Assembly: GCA_022822545.1 (NCBI GenBank)
Contig: JAJEBE010000022.1
Location: 1-63,222 of the forward strand
Length of the DNA: 63,222 bases
Direction: 5' to 3'
DNA from: Anaerolineae bacterium
GTDB taxonomy: Bacteria; Chloroflexota; Anaerolineae; Aggregatilineales; Phototrophicaceae
A program made the position numbers and the translations under genes. Below are positions 1,074-19,077 of the stretch, piece by piece; position 1 is the first letter of the stretch; every line of letters starts with the position of its first letter. Below the pieces are notes generated by a model. It was not told the origin of the DNA and ran no database searches. It saw only the letters and a program-made list of their open reading frames with translations.

Positions 1074-1715
1074 TTAAGCCAATGCCAGCATGATTTCGCG
1101 GGGCAAGACCCGGCGCAGCCGTTCTTCAACTTCGCTGAGCAGCATGGCGGTGGCGCCCCAGACTTTGTGGCCGTCAACGGCGTAATAAGGAACGCGCACA
1201 TCATAGCCGCGGATCAAGCGTTGCTCGACGCCTTTGAAGCGCGGTTGTAGCAGGTCTTCCAGGGACAAGCTGAATACGGCCGAGACTTCTGCGGGATTGA
1301 GCCTAAAAGCCGGTTGGCCTATATAGCCGGCGACAACCGGAGTCACATCGTAATGCGAGGCGGGAATATAGAAGCGGGGCAGCTCGCCGAGTATGCGCAG
1401 CGGGCCGCAGACGCCGATTTCTTCGCAGGTTTCGCGGTGGGCGGTATAGGCGGGGGATGGATCTTGCGGGTCTTGCCGGCCGCCGGGGAAGCTGACTTGC
1501 CCGCTGTGCCCGCGCAGATCCGGGTTGCGCCGGGTCAGGACGGTATGAAGCCGCTTGTCCGCCGATTGGAAGATCAGAATCATAACGGCGGCGCGCTTGG
1601 CCGGGGTATCGCGCCGTTGCCAGCCGCGGGGAGCCGGCGCCATTGCCGCTTGGGCCCGAGGCGAATCGAAGTCTGACAGGGCGATTGCCTGGTGGACGTG
1701 CTCGAAGTTGATCAA
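1074..1715 (-). CDS. Nudix hydrolase, CoA-pyrophosphatase-like
   Basis: About 213 residues. The Nudix box is visible as GHSGQVSFPGGRQDPQD followed by AHRETCEEIGV, giving the G-x5-E-x7-REx2EExGU pattern. The SGQVSFPGG wording is typical of the CoA diphosphatase (NudL/YeaB-like) branch, which cleaves CoA or related nucleoside diphosphates using Mg2+ held by the Nudix glutamates. I chose a TTG start whose TTGA overlaps the TGA of the upstream methyltransferase; the longer reading from 1847 would overlap that gene by 136 bases and looks non-coding there. It sits in an operon with the methyltransferase and the EamA transporter. The exact substrate is inferred. Confidence 0.82.
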   Translation of the reverse strand: MINFEHVHQAIALSDFDSPRAQAAMAPAPRGWQRRDTPAKRAAVMILIFQSADKRLHTVLTRRNPDLRGHSGQVSFPGGRQDPQDPSPAYTAHRETCEEIGVCGPLRILGELPRFYIPASHYDVTPVVAGYIGQPAFRLNPAEVSAVFSLSLEDLLQPRFKGVEQRLIRGYDVRVPYYAVDGHKVWGATAMLLSEVEERLRRVLPREIMLALA

Positions 1716-2887
1716 TCCAGCCACACCTGCAAGTAATGGTCTTTGCGCGGGAAGGTTTTGCCGCGATCGCCGCTTGGCATGCCCAGCGCTTTGGGGACGA
1801 GCCGAAGGCGCAACCGATCGAGCAAGCCGGCGCCGGTCGCCCGCCATTGCTCGTAAAGTCGCTGTATTTTCAAGAAAGCCGCGGAGCCGCCGAAAGTATG
1901 GACTGAACCGCTGCCGGCGTAAGGCGCGAAGGCGACGCTGCCGGGGGTGAAGAGGAGGATGCCGTTGCCTTCCATGCCGTAGCTGTTTTCGCCGTCGGGG
2001 ATCGCGTAGACGGCGAATACGTAGCGCGGCGGCTCATGCAGCATCAAGTAGAGTTGGAAGCCGAACCAGTAATCTTCGGGGGCGAGATCGGCATGCAGGT
2101 GCTGCATTTCCTGGTCTTCGGAGAGTAGCAGGTGCAGGGCGGCGCTGTCGATTTTGTCCACATCGTCGGCGAGGATTTCGAGCGAGCCGCTGCCCACGCG
2201 CTTGCGAACTTGCGGTCCGGCGGCCAAGCCTTGCAGATAGACGAAGGCGCAGGGCCGATTGTCGGCGCTGAGGAGCGCGCCGTCTCGTTTTTTGGTGAAG
2301 GCGGCGCTGACTTGAACGCCATCGAGCCAGATAGGCAGGACGAGCAGCCCCTCGTCGCGCAGTTGGCGCAGCCAGGCGGTCGGGACATCCCAGACGCCGG
2401 CGGTGGCGATGATGCGGTCGTATTGGGCGCGGGGTTCATAACCGGCAGCGGCATCGCGATTGACCACCTGGACCTCGGTAAAGCCGGCCGCGTAGAGGTT
2501 GTCCAGCGCTCGCTCGCTGAGGTCATTGTCGATTTCCAGCGTGGTGACGCTGCCGCTGGCGCCGATGATATGTTGGATGAGGGCGGCGTTGTAGCCGGTG
2601 GCGGCGCCGATCTCCAGCACGTTGAGGCCGGCGCGAAGATCGAGCTGTTCGAGCATGATGGCCATCATGGTGGGTTGGCTGGCGGAACTGACAGTCTCGC
2701 CGCGGTTGCCGGTTTTCAGCGTGAAGGCTTGATCGCGGTAGGCATCGCGCGGATCGAGACGGGGCAAAAACAAATGGCGCGGCACGGCGGAGAATGCCGT
2801 GACCACGCCAGCATCAGAAAGCGCCTGATTTCGTCGAAGCGTTTCGACCAGGTCGCGCTGCAGCTGTTCGGTATCAGCCTCCGGCAT
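1712..2887 (-). CDS. Protein-L-isoaspartate O-methyltransferase-like protein with C-terminal extension
   Basis: About 391 residues. The first 210 carry the PCMT fold: VPRHLFLP, then the SAM-binding loop LNVLEIGAATGYNAALIQ, then a TLEIDNDL acidic motif. PCMTs repair isoaspartyl residues in damaged proteins using S-adenosylmethionine. The remaining 180 residues are unrelated to the classical 210-residue enzyme; a C-terminal extension of this kind is seen in PCMT-like methyltransferases of natural-product and unknown pathways, so repair is not certain. The start at MPEADTEQ is chosen because it overlaps the upstream small gene by 14 bases, which suggests translational coupling; the frame upstream of it reads as low-quality sequence. 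Confidence 0.8.
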   Translation of the reverse strand: MPEADTEQLQRDLVETLRRNQALSDAGVVTAFSAVPRHLFLPRLDPRDAYRDQAFTLKTGNRGETVSSASQPTMMAIMLEQLDLRAGLNVLEIGAATGYNAALIQHIIGASGSVTTLEIDNDLSERALDNLYAAGFTEVQVVNRDAAAGYEPRAQYDRIIATAGVWDVPTAWLRQLRDEGLLVLPIWLDGVQVSAAFTKKRDGALLSADNRPCAFVYLQGLAAGPQVRKRVGSGSLEILADDVDKIDSAALHLLLSEDQEMQHLHADLAPEDYWFGFQLYLMLHEPPRYVFAVYAIPDGENSYGMEGNGILLFTPGSVAFAPYAGSGSVHTFGGSAAFLKIQRLYEQWRATGAGLLDRLRLRLVPKALGMPSGDRGKTFPRKDHYLQVWLD

Positions 2888-3131
2888 ACCAAGCCCGACG
2901 CTTGCGCAGGGAGACGCCGGCTTCCGCACCGCTGCGGCGCGCCGTGCGCACTCGGCCGCGGGAATCAATATGAACTTGCCCGGCCTTTTGCAGGCGTTCG
3001 AACTCTTCGGGCGTGATGGCCGGAGCCGGCTCGCCACCCAAGCGCTCCAGGCGATTGTCCATGTCCTCGCCCGCCGGGCCGTTCAGGCTTTCATCATTGT
3101 CTTCGTTGCGATTTCTGTTTTCGTCGCTCAT
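2874..3131 (-). CDS. Small charged hypothetical protein
   Basis: 85 residues, very acidic at the N-terminus (MSDENRNRNEDNDES) and basic at the C-terminus. No family recognised. A segment near residue 38 (AITPEEFERLQKAGQVHIDSRGRVR) looks like an ordered helix and strand. It is the first gene of the leftward operon, overlapping the PCMT-like gene by 14 bases, and is preceded by a plausible promoter, which supports it being real. Function unknown. Confidence 0.6.
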   Translation of the reverse strand: MSDENRNRNEDNDESLNGPAGEDMDNRLERLGGEPAPAITPEEFERLQKAGQVHIDSRGRVRTARRSGAEAGVSLRKRRAWYAGG

Positions 3132-14213: not shown

Positions 14214-14762
14214 ATGGCGCAGCATAACCAAGACCGCTACGAGGATATTCTAAAGCGCATCGCCGAGCGGCGGCCTTTCGGGGAGAAGCGGCGGGAGGTA
14301 TTGCCGCAGACACCGCAGGAGCGCGCCCTCGACCGCATCAACGCTTATGACTGTCTGGCGGGCTTGACGCGGCAGGTTTATGACCAGTGGCTGTGTTACG
14401 GGCCGAAGAGCCTGCGCGGCTCGGCTTGGGCGGGCGTGGTGGCCTGGGCGCATCGCAAGGGTTATCACGGTTATCAGACGCTGACCTTGCACGGCGTCTG
14501 GGCGCATTACGCCGGCGACGATATGCTGCTTAGCATTGGCAGCCGTCAATTGCCTTATGACGCGCCGGTATATGACGCGGGAGTATTTCGCGTCGCCATC
14601 CAGAACAACTTCAGAATCTACTACGATGACAGCGGGGGGCCGCCAGCGGAGGGCGACCGCTTGCATTATCGCCGCGCCTTCGACGAAGAGGAGCGCCTGC
14701 GGCTGCGTCAAACGCTAAGAGAAATCGTGAAGCGCTGGGGGCGGGAGATGGCGGCTGATTAG
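14214..14762 (+). CDS. Uncharacterised protein convergent with the E1 gene
   Basis: 182 residues, no family recognised. N-terminal half basic and helical (RYEDILKRIAERRPFGEKRREVL); the centre has an aromatic-rich core (HGVWAHYAGDDMLLSIGSRQLPY) and the end is a charged helix. Its stop overlaps the stop of the E1/ThiF gene by 4 bases on the opposite strand. It could belong to the conjugation module, but the opposite orientation makes this weak. It is not Ub-like: no beta-grasp pattern and no terminal Gly-Gly. Confidence 0.5.
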   Translation: MAQHNQDRYEDILKRIAERRPFGEKRREVLPQTPQERALDRINAYDCLAGLTRQVYDQWLCYGPKSLRGSAWAGVVAWAHRKGYHGYQTLTLHGVWAHYAGDDMLLSIGSRQLPYDAPVYDAGVFRVAIQNNFRIYYDDSGGPPAEGDRLHYRRAFDEEERLRLRQTLREIVKRWGREMAAD

Positions 14763-15691
14763 TCGTCCTCGTCCTCATCCTCGAATTCGATATCGGTGGT
14801 AAGCCCGGAGGCAGCCAGATCGGCGAGGGAGATGCCGCCCTCATCTTCTTTGACGAGCATGCTGACGCCTTGTTTCAGTTTTTCGCCGCAGACGAGGCAA
14901 TCGGGATCGCGCCCGATGTCAATCCAGATGCCGGTATGGGGCTCGTTCTCTTGCCCTTCGATGATCTCCATAGCGGTATTGGCGACGATCAGGGTATTGG
15001 CCGGCGCCGGTTCATAGACGGCGGCACCGCGGAGCAACTCGTTGATAATCAGATCGGCCTGGATGCCGGCGACCTTGGTCACATTGACCCAAAGGCCGGG
15101 TTCCGCTTCGAGAGTGCCGGTTTCGTCTATCATGCCGTAGTCGAGATCGCCGACCGGGTTCAGGGAGACCATGACGCCGGCGCGGGTCGCTGCCGACCAG
15201 CAGGCGTAACAGGGGCCGTCAAAGGGCTTGATGATGACATGGTCTCCGCCTTCGCCCCGTTCGTAGACGCCGGCGTAGGAGGCGCTGAGACGTTTCTCCA
15301 GGCATTTCTCGTTGATGGCGTATTTGATCTGCTCGTGGTCCACGGCGACGACCAGGATGTCGACATCATCGAGGCAGTCCCAATGGTCTTCTATCAGGCC
15401 TTGGCGCACTTCGACATTCGCGTCCGGATTGCGGTTGCGGATGAGATCGGCGACGGCGCTGGCTTTATTTTGGCCGATGTAGCGCAGATCGGCGACGTGA
15501 CGGGTGACATTGCCGCGCTCGAGCAGGTCGTGATCCACGAGGACAAAGTTGGCGACTCCGCTCATCGCCAGGCTGAGCGCGACGAAACCGCCGCCGGAGC
15601 CCAAGCCGACGACCGCAACCTTCTTTTCGCCGAGTTGGTCCAGGTTATCGGAGCCGATCAATCTTTCGACGCGTTCCCAAATATCAGCCAT
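14759..15691 (-). CDS. E1-like / ThiF-family adenylyltransferase
   Basis: 310 residues. Activates the C-terminus of a ubiquitin-like protein by adenylation. Seen: nucleotide loop VAVVGLGSGGG, VLVDHD with Asp53, NVTRH with Arg64, GQNKASAV with Lys76, and Zn pairs CYAC and CLVC. The C-terminus ends in an acidic tail (EFEDEDEDD). Start at MADIWERV is preferred; the longer frame overlaps the JAB gene. Immediately downstream of the JAB-like gene (4-base gap), which follows the E2-like gene, so the three are one operon. Unlike eukaryotic E1s no separate catalytic-cysteine domain or Ub-fold domain is apparent. Its ubiquitin-like substrate is not encoded nearby. Confidence 0.9.
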   Translation of the reverse strand: MADIWERVERLIGSDNLDQLGEKKVAVVGLGSGGGFVALSLAMSGVANFVLVDHDLLERGNVTRHVADLRYIGQNKASAVADLIRNRNPDANVEVRQGLIEDHWDCLDDVDILVVAVDHEQIKYAINEKCLEKRLSASYAGVYERGEGGDHVIIKPFDGPCYACWSAATRAGVMVSLNPVGDLDYGMIDETGTLEAEPGLWVNVTKVAGIQADLIINELLRGAAVYEPAPANTLIVANTAMEIIEGQENEPHTGIWIDIGRDPDCLVCGEKLKQGVSMLVKEDEGGISLADLAASGLTTDIEFEDEDEDD

Positions 15692-15695
15692 GTTA

Positions 15696-16940
15696 CTATG
15701 CCTCTTTGTCGGTCTTTTCGTTTTCGGCGAGCGCTTCGGCAGCCGTCGGGTCGGCATCATTGGCGCCTTCCGCGCCGCTGGAATCCTCTCCGCTCGGCGC
15801 GTCGTCTTCATCCAGCAAAACCGGGATGGACAGGGACGGCGGCGGCCGCAAGCCCATGTCGATTTCGATGGCGACAAGGTAATCGATGAGGTAGTTGTCG
15901 CTGGTCCATTGCCAGTCGGGCGGATCTTCGATTGGGGTCGCGACCTGCCAGAGTTTTTGGAAAGTCGCCACCGGGTCCATCAGATCCAGGCCGTTGACAA
16001 AAGGCGCCTGGTAAGCTTTCGGCCGCGAATGGGGATAATCGTGCTGGGTGACAAACAAGAGAAAGAAGCTGGCGCCTTGCCGAATGGTGAAGAAACAGAA
16101 TTCCAGCGGCACTTCGCCATCGCATTCGTAGAAGAGCGTGCGGACGAGCAAGCCGTCATCGACCAGGGCAAGGGTCTCGCTGGTCAGGCGGTCGGCCAAG
16201 ACGACATGCCAGCCATATTTCATCATCTGCGGCAGTTCAGCGGCGGGCACCACTTTGGGATGCACGGGCTGGAAGACGCGAATGTCGCGGTGGATATACC
16301 ACCAATCCACGCGCATATCGAGGCCGTTTCCCATGGGAACGGTGATGTAGTTCACGGCCAGGTCGGCATCGCCGATGGTAGGCGCGTGGCCGACTGTGAC
16401 GATGGGCACCAGCAGCGAATCCATGCCGAGCTCATCGTCATCGAGCCAGGATAGCGCCGTCATCAAGTCGCCGTGGCTGGGCTGGATCATGGAGCCGGGC
16501 TGTTTGTGCCAGTCGCCCAGGTAGCGCAGGGGCACATCAAAGCGGTCGATAAGCGAATCGGCGCCGCGGTGACGCTCGCGGTGAAAATGCCAATTCTCTT
16601 GCAGCCACCAGATGACTTCGTCTTGCAGGGCGTCGCCTTGCTGAAATGTGTGGGAGCGGCGGACGGCGGTTTCGTCGGGGGAGATGGTATCGAGCACGTA
16701 GATGGTGGGCAACCCTTCGGGGGTGTCGTCTTCGACGATGAAGCCAACCATGGCCTCGCCGGTTTCGTCGGCCATGTATTGGCTGGCGGCGGAGAGCATG
16801 CGTTCGACCGCGCGCTGCGACAGGACCAGGTTGGGTACGATACCACGTGAAATCATAGCCATCCCCCGCAAGCGCTTCCTGATATGTTCAAACTCGATGT
16901 GGACGAGTCTGAGGATTTCCGGCTCAGCCCGCGCAGCCAT
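15696..16940 (-). CDS. JAB/JAMM-like protein with a degenerate UBC/RWD-like C-terminal half
   Basis: 414 residues. N-terminal JAMM domain about 35-205: Glu62 in GEAMVGFI, then WHKQP (145-148) and PSHGD (154-158), so HxQ-x7-SxxD instead of the canonical HxH-x7-SxxD that binds Zn. The middle and C-terminal part (about 245-370) has EVPLEFCFF, SFFLLFVTQHDYPHSRPKAY and a Trp-containing helix, resembling an E2-type UBC fold without the catalytic Cys. Ends in an acidic, disordered tail. JAMM proteins of bacterial Ub-like systems process modifiers or remove them from targets. The gene starts 2 bases after the E2 stop, with GGAGG overlapping that stop. Confidence 0.68.
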   Translation of the reverse strand: MAARAEPEILRLVHIEFEHIRKRLRGMAMISRGIVPNLVLSQRAVERMLSAASQYMADETGEAMVGFIVEDDTPEGLPTIYVLDTISPDETAVRRSHTFQQGDALQDEVIWWLQENWHFHRERHRGADSLIDRFDVPLRYLGDWHKQPGSMIQPSHGDLMTALSWLDDDELGMDSLLVPIVTVGHAPTIGDADLAVNYITVPMGNGLDMRVDWWYIHRDIRVFQPVHPKVVPAAELPQMMKYGWHVVLADRLTSETLALVDDGLLVRTLFYECDGEVPLEFCFFTIRQGASFFLLFVTQHDYPHSRPKAYQAPFVNGLDLMDPVATFQKLWQVATPIEDPPDWQWTSDNYLIDYLVAIEIDMGLRPPPSLSIPVLLDEDDAPSGEDSSGAEGANDADPTAAEALAENEKTDKEA

Positions 16941-16942
16941 GT

Positions 16943-17416
16943 TCAGCGCCTCCGACGGCGGGGCAATGGCGTGCTCGCTTTGATGCGTTCTTCAATGCCG
17001 GGCCAGTTTCCAGTCGAGCGCCAGGTGTAATAGGCGTAGAGCCATTGAATCGCCCAACCGCCGACGGTTACCGCGGTGGACTTGGATGGATTCCAGCCGT
17101 ATTGTTCGCCATCTTTGGGGTTAAAGAGGCAGAGCTGTCCGTCTTCGTACTGGTGTTTTTCGCTATAGATGCGCGGTTTGACGCAATAGGCTTCGGCGGG
17201 CCGGTTGGGGTATTCCTTGGGATAGACGAGCTTGAGGCTGTGATTGGGCGAATCGAGAATGCTCATGTTGATCTCGACATTGCCCTGCCAATAGAGCAAG
17301 CCGCCAAACGGGGGGACGACCAATTTGAAGGTATTGCCAAAGGTGGCTTTCATCGCCTCGACTTCCCATACGAGACGGGCGGAGACATTCTTGCGCGAGC
17401 CCCACCAATTTGACAT
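16943..17416 (-). CDS. Prokaryotic E2-like (UBC-fold) protein
   Basis: 157 residues. The UBC fold is visible: strands LKLVYPKEYPNRPAEAYCV (YPxxPP-type turn), His88, then EDGQLCLFNP with the presumed catalytic Cys96, W109NPSKSTA, and helices ending in a basic tail RRRRR. E2s carry an activated Ub-like protein as a thioester. First gene of the leftward operon E2-JAB-E1. Ribosome-binding site GGAG precedes the ATG. About 80 bases upstream lies MITE-like element B. The modifier and any E3 are not visible here. Domain assignment is by motif and order; a profile search would settle it. Confidence 0.75.
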   Translation of the reverse strand: MSNWWGSRKNVSARLVWEVEAMKATFGNTFKLVVPPFGGLLYWQGNVEINMSILDSPNHSLKLVYPKEYPNRPAEAYCVKPRIYSEKHQYEDGQLCLFNPKDGEQYGWNPSKSTAVTVGGWAIQWLYAYYTWRSTGNWPGIEERIKASTPLPRRRRR

Positions 17417-17998: not shown

Positions 17999-18057
17999 CT
18001 TCGTCTATCTAGGCAAATCCTATCGCGGATTGCCAGCCAACGCAAGGAGTGCAGGAA

Positions 18058-19077
18058 ATGTCCACACAATTTTTTGTCCGTCTCGGCATGATATTGGGAT
18101 TCATGATTCTATCCGTGTTGCCCGTTGCGGCGCAGGAGGGTGTTGCGCTCACCGTTTACTCGGGCCGCAATGAGAGCCTGATCGGCCCGATCCTGCAGCA
18201 ATTCACGGAAGATACCGGCATCGCCGTCGAAGTACTCTATGGCGGTACAAGCGCGGTCGCCAATCAGATCCTCACCGAGGGAGAAAACAGCCCGGCCGAT
18301 GTGTTTATCGCGCAGGATGGCGGCGCCTTGGGCGCGTTGGCCGCGGCTGAGATGGTTCACAAACTGCCGGAGGCGACGTTGGAACGCGTCGTCGATGAAG
18401 CATTTGCGTCGCCGGACGGCGTCTGGGTGGGGTTGAGCGGCCGGGCGCGCGTCCTGGTTTATAGTCCGGAGACGCTTGAAGAACTGGGGCTGGAATTGCC
18501 GGCATCGATTCTCGAGCTGACGGAGGAGCAGTGGCGCGGTCAGGTCGGCTGGGCGCCGACGAACGCCTCTTTCGTCTCGAACGTGACGGCTATGCGCACC
18601 CTCGCGGGTGAAGAAGAAACAGCGGCATGGCTGGCGGGAATGCTGGCTAATGACGTGCAGGCCTACCCCAAGAACACGCCGATCGTGCAAGCGGTGATCG
18701 ATGGCGAAGTGGCGGTTGGTTTGGTCAATCACTATTATCTGTTTCGTTTCCTGGCGGAAGATCCGGATATCATCGCCACGCTGCATTTCTTCCCCGGCGG
18801 CGACCTGGGCTCACTGATCAATGTGGCCGGCGCGGCGATTCTGAAGTCAACGGACCAGCCCTACGACGCCTTGGCGCTGGTCGATTATCTGCTCAGCGAC
18901 AGGGCGCAAGAATACTTCGCGACGACGACCTACGAGTATCCCCTGGTGGATACGGTTGAGCCCTCCGTTGATCTGCCGGCGCTGGCGGACATCGAGGCGC
19001 CCGATATTGATCTGTCCGATCTCGCGGATCTGCAGGGGACGCTGGAAATGATCGAAGAAAGCGGCGCGCTGGATTAG
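18058..19077 (+). CDS. Iron(III)-type ABC transporter substrate-binding protein
   Basis: 339 residues. Signal peptide about 1-25 (LGMILGFMILSVLPVAAQ) exported to the outside of the membrane, then VYSGRNESLIGPILQQF, GGTSAVANQI and DVFIAQDGGAL typical of FbpA/FutA/AfuA proteins, and a C-terminal ending with a distal domain EYPLVDTVEPS. These bind ferric ions, often with bound anion. Tyrosines that usually hold the iron cannot be assigned surely here (NHYYLFRF, about 225, is a candidate). Followed by permease and ATPase genes. The ATG is preferred over the GTG three codons upstream because AAGGAG sits 8 bases before it. Confidence 0.85.
   Translation: MSTQFFVRLGMILGFMILSVLPVAAQEGVALTVYSGRNESLIGPILQQFTEDTGIAVEVLYGGTSAVANQILTEGENSPADVFIAQDGGALGALAAAEMVHKLPEATLERVVDEAFASPDGVWVGLSGRARVLVYSPETLEELGLELPASILELTEEQWRGQVGWAPTNASFVSNVTAMRTLAGEEETAAWLAGMLANDVQAYPKNTPIVQAVIDGEVAVGLVNHYYLFRFLAEDPDIIATLHFFPGGDLGSLINVAGAAILKSTDQPYDALALVDYLLSDRAQEYFATTTYEYPLVDTVEPSVDLPALADIEAPDIDLSDLADLQGTLEMIEESGALD

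What the first reader, a model, noticed from the sequence alone, without database searches (positions are those of the whole stretch)
14759..17416. Compact E2-JAB-E1 operon: a ubiquitin-like conjugation module without a visible modifier gene
Three genes in one direction, 2 and 4 bases apart, encode an E2-like protein (Cys96, His88, Trp109), a JAMM-like protein and an E1/ThiF protein. Bacterial Ub-like modules (for example Bil and CBASS type II) need a Ub-like or target protein; none is seen here, and there is no CD-NTase. The modifier may be encoded elsewhere, or the system may target another protein directly. The convergent 182-residue gene at 14214-14762 is a weak candidate partner.
Basis: partly seen in the sequence, partly recalled or inferred. 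Interest (0 to 1): 0.85.

Follow-up and report, generated by a model that had tools for sequence, protein, structure and literature searches.

The report
Ubiquitin-like system with disordered partner protein
Most genomes of one order of Chloroflexota bacteria carry an E2 enzyme, normally beside an E1 and a JAB protein as in ubiquitin systems, plus a small protein that is predicted to be mostly disordered and is likely the tag that these enzymes attach to other proteins.

Summary
The E2-JAB-E1 operon is real, at the stated coordinates and spacings. An E2 of this family is in 135 of 154 genomes of the window's order. The "missing" fourth component was found: in divergent relatives a small same-strand gene follows E1 (34 of 42 loci; 31 of the 34 within 32 bases). 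The window encodes it at 2874-3131 (minus), 11.6 kb downstream of E1. E2 and small gene co-occur: both 130, neither 14, E2 only 5, small only 5 of 154; the mismatches are incomplete genomes or contigs that end early, two of them not proven. Half of the association rests on clade absences. By low-confidence prediction the small protein is not beta-grasp; it has a nearly invariant 52-residue core ending SLRKRRAWY and mostly 0-3 variable residues behind it. The convergent 182-residue gene was seen only in the window's close clade and is not a likely partner. The JAB has HxQ instead of HxH in most members; the E1 keeps its CxxC pairs but no crossover-loop cysteine. Best reading: a conjugation module whose likely modifier (or main substrate) is this small protein. 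That role is untested.

The parts
16943..17416 (-). E2-like (UBC) protein, 157 aa, catalytic-type Cys96 with His88
   Evidence: PADLOC E2 3.1e-15; PDB profile matches to E2 L3-type chains 8e-6 to 2e-5 and to a bacterial E2 (8hsb) 2e-3; H88, C96, W108 invariant in 15 of 15
15696..16940 (-). JAB/JAMM protein, 414 aa: JAMM domain (about 36-185) with HKQ in place of HxH, plus a C-terminal domain (about 241-361) with E2/RWD-like order of elements and a DYP motif
   Evidence: C-terminal domain against the E2 profile: 74.5% probability over 31 columns, JAMM domain as control 1.2%
14759..15691 (-). E1/ThiF-like adenylating enzyme, 310 aa, two invariant CxxC pairs, no conserved crossover-loop Cys
   Evidence: Pfam ThiF 7.6e-30; PDB ThiF 2.2e-18, then MoeB, MccB, UBA5, Cap2; conservation
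2874..3131 (-). Fourth component: small protein, 85 aa, predicted disordered N-terminal half + conserved core LGGEPAP...SLRKRRAWY, here ending AGG; likely modifier or main substrate
   Evidence: own-genome profile match 9.3e-38, ORF; behind E1 in 34 of 42 divergent loci; 1614 relatives at E<=0.01, the 120 listed without a Pfam domain; model
1712..2887 (-). PCMT-type methyltransferase (protein-L-isoaspartate O-methyltransferase family), follows the small gene here and in many relatives; optional companion
   Evidence: Pfam PCMT 1.2e-42 for 1712-2884; gene order; start codon chosen by eye
1074..1847 (-). NUDIX hydrolase, next companion gene (start codon uncertain)
   Evidence: Pfam NUDIX 7.9e-13 for 1074-1775; gene order

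Best explanation
The E2, JAB and E1 genes are kept across the order together with a small gene that lies 11.6 kb downstream here, and the four likely work as a ubiquitin-like conjugation system whose modifier would be the small protein, which is predicted to be largely disordered rather than a beta-grasp ubiquitin. Shown by the calls: the gene set, its conservation, the invariant adenylation-type residues of the E1 and the E2 cysteine, and the co-occurrence of E2 and small gene. Inferred: the E1 would adenylate the C-terminus of the small protein, perhaps after the JAB protein trims the variable residues behind the conserved AWY; the E2 Cys96 would take it over directly, because the E1 has no conserved cysteine at the usual place; the E2, with the E2/RWD-like domain of the JAB protein as a possible helper, would pass it to target proteins; and the JAB domain would remove it. 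As the set is order-wide, a housekeeping role (perhaps protein quality control, given the PCMT repair-type neighbour) is more likely than phage defence.
For: Adjacency: 34 of 42 divergent loci have the small gene behind E1 on the same strand; in 31 of these 34 the distance is -32 to +24 bases, 10 of them 4-base overlaps; the others are 170, 212 and 1220 bases (the script took the start codon nearest to the E1 end, which favours short distances). Of the other 8 of 42, 5 end at a contig end and 3 (L045, L047, L071) carry the gene elsewhere in the genome. Co-occurrence in the order, 154 genomes: both 130, E2 only 5, small only 5, neither 14 (Fisher 4e-12). The five E2-only genomes: contigs end 1.3, 1.3 and 1.6 kb behind E2 in G282, G289 and G262, and 11.3 and 13.4 kb behind it in G323 and G210, about where the gene lies in that genus. 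The five small-only genomes are 74-84% complete. Class sample: the same 10 of 199 genomes hold the strong E2 and the small protein. Unlinked retention: G226 (152 kb apart on one contig), G019, G317 and the genomes of L047 and L071 (other contigs), and the window itself. The small core is the best conserved part of the set: median identity to the window 87%, against 72.5 E2, 57 E1, 43.5 JAB (16 chosen loci, 14 for the small core, two divergent ones lacking the core pattern). E1 relatives MccB and Cap2 act on non-ubiquitin C-termini (Cap2: PMC10097602, passages; MccB recalled). 75 of 120 family members have Gly or Ala right behind AWY and 110 of 120 have a tail of 0-3 residues.
Against: No strict C-terminal residue: only 41 of 120 end in Gly or Ala, 6 in GG, and 5 end at the Tyr of AWY, whereas CD-NTases conjugated by Cap2 end in conserved Gly/Ala (PMC10097602). 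Not beta-grasp by prediction (low confidence, pLDDT 66). Co-occurrence is partly clade-driven: 12 of the 14 double absences are in three families; without them Fisher is 0.039. Order-wide, only the E2 and the small gene were counted, not JAB and E1. In the window the small gene keeps company with PCMT/NUDIX rather than with the trio, so a link to PCMT is possible, although PCMT was not found next to it in L079, L081, L082, L088, L133, L137-L140. JAB HxQ may mean a weakened or lost protease. Cys282 in the JAB C-terminal domain is in 26 of 27, unexplained. No conjugate, no interaction and no complex model was made.
Confidence: 0.45

Rival explanations
1. The small protein is the dedicated target or adaptor of the enzymes, not the modifier: another Ub-like protein (for example the genome's ThiS or MoaD) is attached to it, perhaps at the lysine of SLRKRRAWY.
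For: The core has one lysine kept in 118 of 118 members of equal length (of 120), and 45 of 120 proteins have no other. Two ThiS-family matches above the cut-off are in the genome.
Against: In G250 (L175) that lysine is arginine. The ThiS-family gene at C10:42603-42860 sits beside the only other match of the E1 at E<=0.001 (C10:42968-43444), so it likely has its own E1. No Ub-like gene was recognised near the trio (by eye and by clustering, not every frame was family-searched).
Confidence: 0.25
2. The small protein belongs functionally to the PCMT/NUDIX genes or to another process, and its place behind E1 is inherited neighbourhood; the trio uses an unseen modifier.
For: In the window it stays with PCMT and NUDIX, not with the trio; co-occurrence is partly clade-driven.
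Against: It stays behind E1 without a PCMT found next to it in L079, L081, L082, L088 and L137-L140; it is kept though unlinked from the trio in several genomes.
Confidence: 0.2
3. An E1-like peptide-modification pathway in the manner of microcin C7, with the small protein as precursor peptide and the E2 as acyl carrier.
For: MccB is among the best E1 matches; an E1 without crossover-loop cysteine fits adenylation without a thioester.
Against: The small core is strongly conserved across an order and nearly universal in it; precursor peptides usually vary (recalled). A JAB protease and an E2 are not part of microcin C7 synthesis (recalled).
Confidence: 0.05
4. A phage-defence system of the Bil or type II CBASS kind.
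For: PADLOC E1-E2, E2 and JAB models match.
Against: Order-wide, mostly single-copy distribution (133 of 135 with one match); no relative of the E2 in viral contigs; no SMODS CD-NTase in the genome; none of the NCBIfam defence models listed reaches its cut-off (25 of 28 rows shown for the E1).
Confidence: 0.05

Closest known systems
Type II CBASS Cap2 (E1-E2) and Cap3 (JAB)
   Same: E1, E2 with catalytic Cys and a JAB; conjugation of a protein that is not beta-grasp is established there (PMC10097602, passages); Cap3 is a structural match of the JAB domain (9ild)
   Different: E1 and E2 are separate genes; no SMODS CD-NTase; small disordered partner instead; no conserved C-terminal Gly/Ala; order-wide distribution
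Operon type 6d of Iyer et al. 2006 (Ub-like, JAB, E1, E2, helical protein)
   Same: E2, JAB and E1 plus one small protein (PMC1779556, section 14 read in full)
   Different: 6d's small protein is a predicted beta-grasp with a highly conserved C-terminal Gly, its E2 lacks the upstream His, and its JAB has an N-terminal extra domain; here the extra domain is C-terminal
BilABCD
   Same: Four-gene layout with modifier, E2, JAB and E1 (PMC11354881, passages)
   Different: BilA has two Ub-like domains; BilD has two adenylation domains and a Cys domain, against a 310-aa protein with one ThiF match here
Pupylation
   Same: A small, disordered modifier (recalled)
   Different: Pup ends in GGE/GGQ and uses a glutamine-synthetase-like ligase, not E1/E2 (recalled); here GGE is internal
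MccB / microcin C7
   Same: ThiF-type enzyme acting on a short unstructured C-terminus (recalled); close E1 match
   Different: No E2 or JAB there (recalled)

Membership tests
Type II CBASS | CD-NTase gene in the operon | tested here: not met
   No SMODS (PF18144) match in the genome at E<=1; the same search rings in 5 of 14 control genomes. Other CD-NTase families were not searched genome-wide; no such cluster was recognised among conserved neighbours
Type II CBASS | E1 and E2 fused in Cap2 | tested here: not met
   Separate genes in the 69 of 74 loci with all three
Type II CBASS | Cap3 model cut-off | tested here: not met
   NF050170 12.8 bits against a cut-off of 200
Bil (BilABCD) | Ub-like modifier gene in the operon | tested here: not met
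   None recognised between or beside the trio (by eye and clustering); the small protein is not predicted beta-grasp (low confidence)
Bil (BilABCD) | E1 with two adenylation domains and a Cys domain | tested here: not met
   310 aa with one ThiF match
Operon type 6d (2006) | Small protein with conserved C-terminal Gly | tested here: not met
   17 of 120 end in Gly, 41 of 120 in Gly or Ala
Operon type 6a / 6A-MBL | Triple-module E2-E1-JAB protein | tested here: not met
   Separate genes; NF058523 52.2 bits for the E1 against a cut-off of 320
E2 (UBC) superfamily | UBC-type profile match and catalytic Cys with nearby His | tested here: met
   the Pfam cut-off is not reached by the window protein and no structure model of the E2 was made
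JAMM/JAB metalloproteases | JAMM fold | tested here: met
JAMM/JAB metalloproteases | E...HxH...S..D zinc motif | tested here: not met
   HKQ in the window and in 120 of 120 listed homologues; HKH in family f57 and G178; Glu62, His145, Ser155, Asp158 invariant in 27 of 27
E1/ThiF superfamily | Nucleotide-binding and adenylation residues | tested here: met
   G29, G31-G34 region, D53, N61, R64, K76, D118 invariant in 21 of 21, in line with ThiF/MoeB in the alignment; their roles are recalled
E1 with thioester step | Catalytic Cys in the crossover loop | tested here: not met
   Only the two CxxC pairs are cysteine in 21 of 21; Cys130 in 14 of 21
Pup | C-terminal GGE/GGQ | tested here: not met
   GGE is internal, about 50 residues before the end; a Pup ligase was not searched for
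RWD/UEV domain in JAB C-terminus | E2/RWD fold without catalytic Cys | tested here: inconclusive
   Order of elements and DYP motif fit, hhalign 74.5% over 31 columns; Pfam RWD in 1 of 27 members at 0.41; the domain alone was not fold-searched; a Cys at 282 is in 26 of 27

The most novel reading that the evidence does not exclude
An entire bacterial order runs a housekeeping E1-E2-JAMM conjugation system whose modifier is an intrinsically disordered mini-protein with a conserved LGGEP...SLRKRRAWY segment, so ubiquitin-type enzymes were wired to a non-beta-grasp modifier outside immunity, with a JAMM protease altered at a zinc ligand and an E1 that hands its cargo straight to the E2.
Probability: 0.35. 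Interest if true: 0.85.

Novelty: new variant of a known kind. Interest (0 to 1): 0.62.

Why it matters
Most ubiquitin-like modifiers activated by E1 enzymes share the beta-grasp fold (recalled); CD-NTases in CBASS are an established exception (PMC10097602, passages). A disordered, order-wide modifier would show that the E1-E2-JAMM chemistry is not tied to that fold and is used in ordinary bacterial physiology, not only in defence. The gene set gives a direct test: four genes, one small partner, clear catalytic residues. It also points to partners for a large small-protein family that no library used here names (1614 relatives at E<=0.01).

Tried and rejected
Gaps of more than 50 bases between JAB and E1 (L019, L021-L023, L025, L031, L034, L047, L074, L083-L085, L087) were read for a hidden Ub-like gene: none recognised (by eye, no fold test). 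The 182-residue convergent gene as partner: no family match, seen only in the window's close clade and L045. ThiS/MoaD as the modifier: present, one of them beside its own E1; not excluded. An invariant di-glycine cut site (LGG|E) as the maturation point: LGGEPAP is in 120 of 120 listed hits, but the more distant family f57 has LSG or LAG and G307 has LAG with an HKQ JAB, so a strict GG rule fails; HKH with non-LGG in f57 is probably one evolutionary event. Invariant lysine: lost in G250. The small-protein model gave no PDB match at E<=0.001, and its PDB sequence matches (CodY 0.036) look like chance. Lysine poverty is not distinctive: K/(K+R) 0.14 in the small protein, but 0.16 in the NUDIX neighbour. 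Viral contigs: no relative of the E2. Print: the listed rows of searches show no description of this module in Chloroflexota; several searches matched far more papers than were listed, and subscription papers are mostly not held, so absence there is weak.
Full report
The observation. The window holds three minus-strand genes with 2 and 4 bases between them: an E2 (16943-17416), a JAB protein (15696-16940) and an E1/ThiF protein (14759-15691). PADLOC E2, JAB and E1-E2 models and Pfam ThiF support the three identities, and a profile of 15 E2s finds eukaryotic E2 structures and, more weakly, a bacterial one. His88 and Cys96 are invariant; the tryptophan is 108. Upstream, facing away, is a solute-binding protein (18049-19077). 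Downstream, convergent and overlapping the E1 end by 4 bases, is the 182-residue gene.

Spread. A pattern-based scan of one genome for each of 84,980 species with the JAB protein gave 74 loci, 73 of them with titles from Chloroflexota, Anaerolineae or groups within them and one titled Bacteroidetes (L058, perhaps misbinned). All three genes in the same order are seen in 69 of 74; the other five are cut by contig ends. In the window's order the E2 is in 135 of 154 genomes, with one match in 133 of these. In a class sample of 199 genomes the strong E2 is in 10, all of this order; three others have only weaker matches (5e-10 to 8e-14) and no small protein. No viral contig gave a relative of the E2. 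I read this as an inherited gene set, not a patchy defence island; a tree was not built.

The fourth component. Clustering all reading frames around 75 loci (74 and the window) showed one small same-strand gene behind E1 in 34 of 42 divergent loci and in none of the window's close clade. Its sequences have an unconserved N-terminal part (31-76 residues before LGGEPAP in 120 listed relatives) and then a core, LGGEPAPxITPEEFARLQxAGQVHIDxRGRVRTxRRSDAEAGVSLRKRRAWY. A profile of 15 of them finds one strong match in the window's own genome, and it lies in the window: 2874-3131, minus strand, 85 aa, ending AWYAGG. Behind it come PCMT and NUDIX genes, as in many relatives where the same row follows E1. 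So in the window 11.6 kb lies between E1 and the fourth gene, and the row is otherwise kept.

Is it a partner? In the order, 130 of 154 genomes have both E2 and the small protein, 14 have neither, 5 have only E2 and 5 only the small protein. Of the five E2-only genomes, three have contigs that end 1.3-1.6 kb behind E2 and two (G323, G210, same genus as the window) have contigs that end 11.3 and 13.4 kb behind it, about where the gene lies in that genus, so these two are plausible but not proven. The five small-only genomes are 74-84% complete. The genes stay in the genome even when apart on the map: 152 kb in G226, other contigs in G019, G317 and the genomes of L047 and L071. Against this, 12 of the 14 double absences fall in three families, and without them the association is weak (Fisher 0.039 against 4e-12 with them). 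In 31 of the 34 loci the distance from E1 to the small gene is -32 to +24 bases, 10 of them four-base overlaps, with the start codon nearest to E1 taken. I take membership in one functional set as likely (about 0.8), and the modifier role as less certain.

What the small protein is. AlphaFold with 30 sequences gives a low-confidence model (pLDDT 66, pTM 0.32): disordered N-terminal half, helices at 24-30 and 41-49 and a two-strand hairpin at 53-63; no beta-grasp is seen, no Foldseek match at E<=0.001, and no Pfam match. 1614 relatives were scored at E<=0.01 (the 120 listed carry no Pfam domain). The core is the most conserved part of the set: 87% median identity to the window against 72.5 for E2, 57 for E1 and 43.5 for JAB. 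The most distant members read lose the double glycine (LSG, LAG) but keep RRAWY. Behind AWY, 110 of 120 have 0-3 residues; 75 of 120 begin there with Gly or Ala, but only 41 of 120 end in Gly or Ala. This fits a tail that is trimmed, or a motif read in the middle; it does not fit a strict terminal-glycine rule.

Mechanism. I commit to this: E1 would adenylate the C-terminus of the small protein, E2 Cys96 would take it directly and pass it to targets, and JAB would trim or remove it. Every chemical step is inferred. The main rivals are that the small protein is the target rather than the modifier, or that it belongs with PCMT. CBASS shows that Cap2-type enzymes do conjugate a protein without beta-grasp fold or double glycine (PMC10097602, passages), so the idea has a precedent.

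Known kinds. The 2006 survey (PMC1779556; section 14 read in full; passages) lists operon types 6a-6e; none is this one. 6d is closest in layout but has a predicted beta-grasp protein with conserved C-terminal glycine. Bil has Ub-like BilA and an E1 with two adenylation domains (PMC11354881, passages). In my literature searches no listed row describes this set; for listed papers I saw titles and starts of abstracts, and only the three papers named here were opened.

Verdict. The surprise is its order-wide distribution and the non-ubiquitin look of its likely modifier.

Noticed in passing
L197 938-2074 (G336:C218): An RHS-type C-terminus (named RHS repeat-associated core domain-containing protein by a source) carries a look-alike of the small protein's end, GRIRVGR...SLRRRRAWYS, just before a segment with a sub-cut-off Tox-PL-2 match (0.18). 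The protein search found only this same sequence. It may mean the tail is a transferable tag.
   Followed up: partly
JAB genes of L132, L137, L157-L165 and L138: The JAB zinc motif is HKH in family f57 and in G178 and HKQ in most others; f57 also has LSG or LAG instead of LGG in the small protein. Probably one or two evolutionary events.
   Followed up: partly
14214-14762: The convergent 182-residue gene has no family match and was seen only in the window's close clade and L045.
   Followed up: partly
L047 6283-6828: Several short reading frames sit between JAB and E1 in this genome; not Ub-like by eye.
   Followed up: no
G000:C10:42603-43444 (outside the window): The only other match of the E1 in the genome at E<=0.001 lies beside a ThiS-family gene.
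   Followed up: no
L141 6547-7467 (G127:C20): The E1 match is split over two reading frames, and the JAB gene over two contigs, in this assembly; not mended.
   Followed up: no
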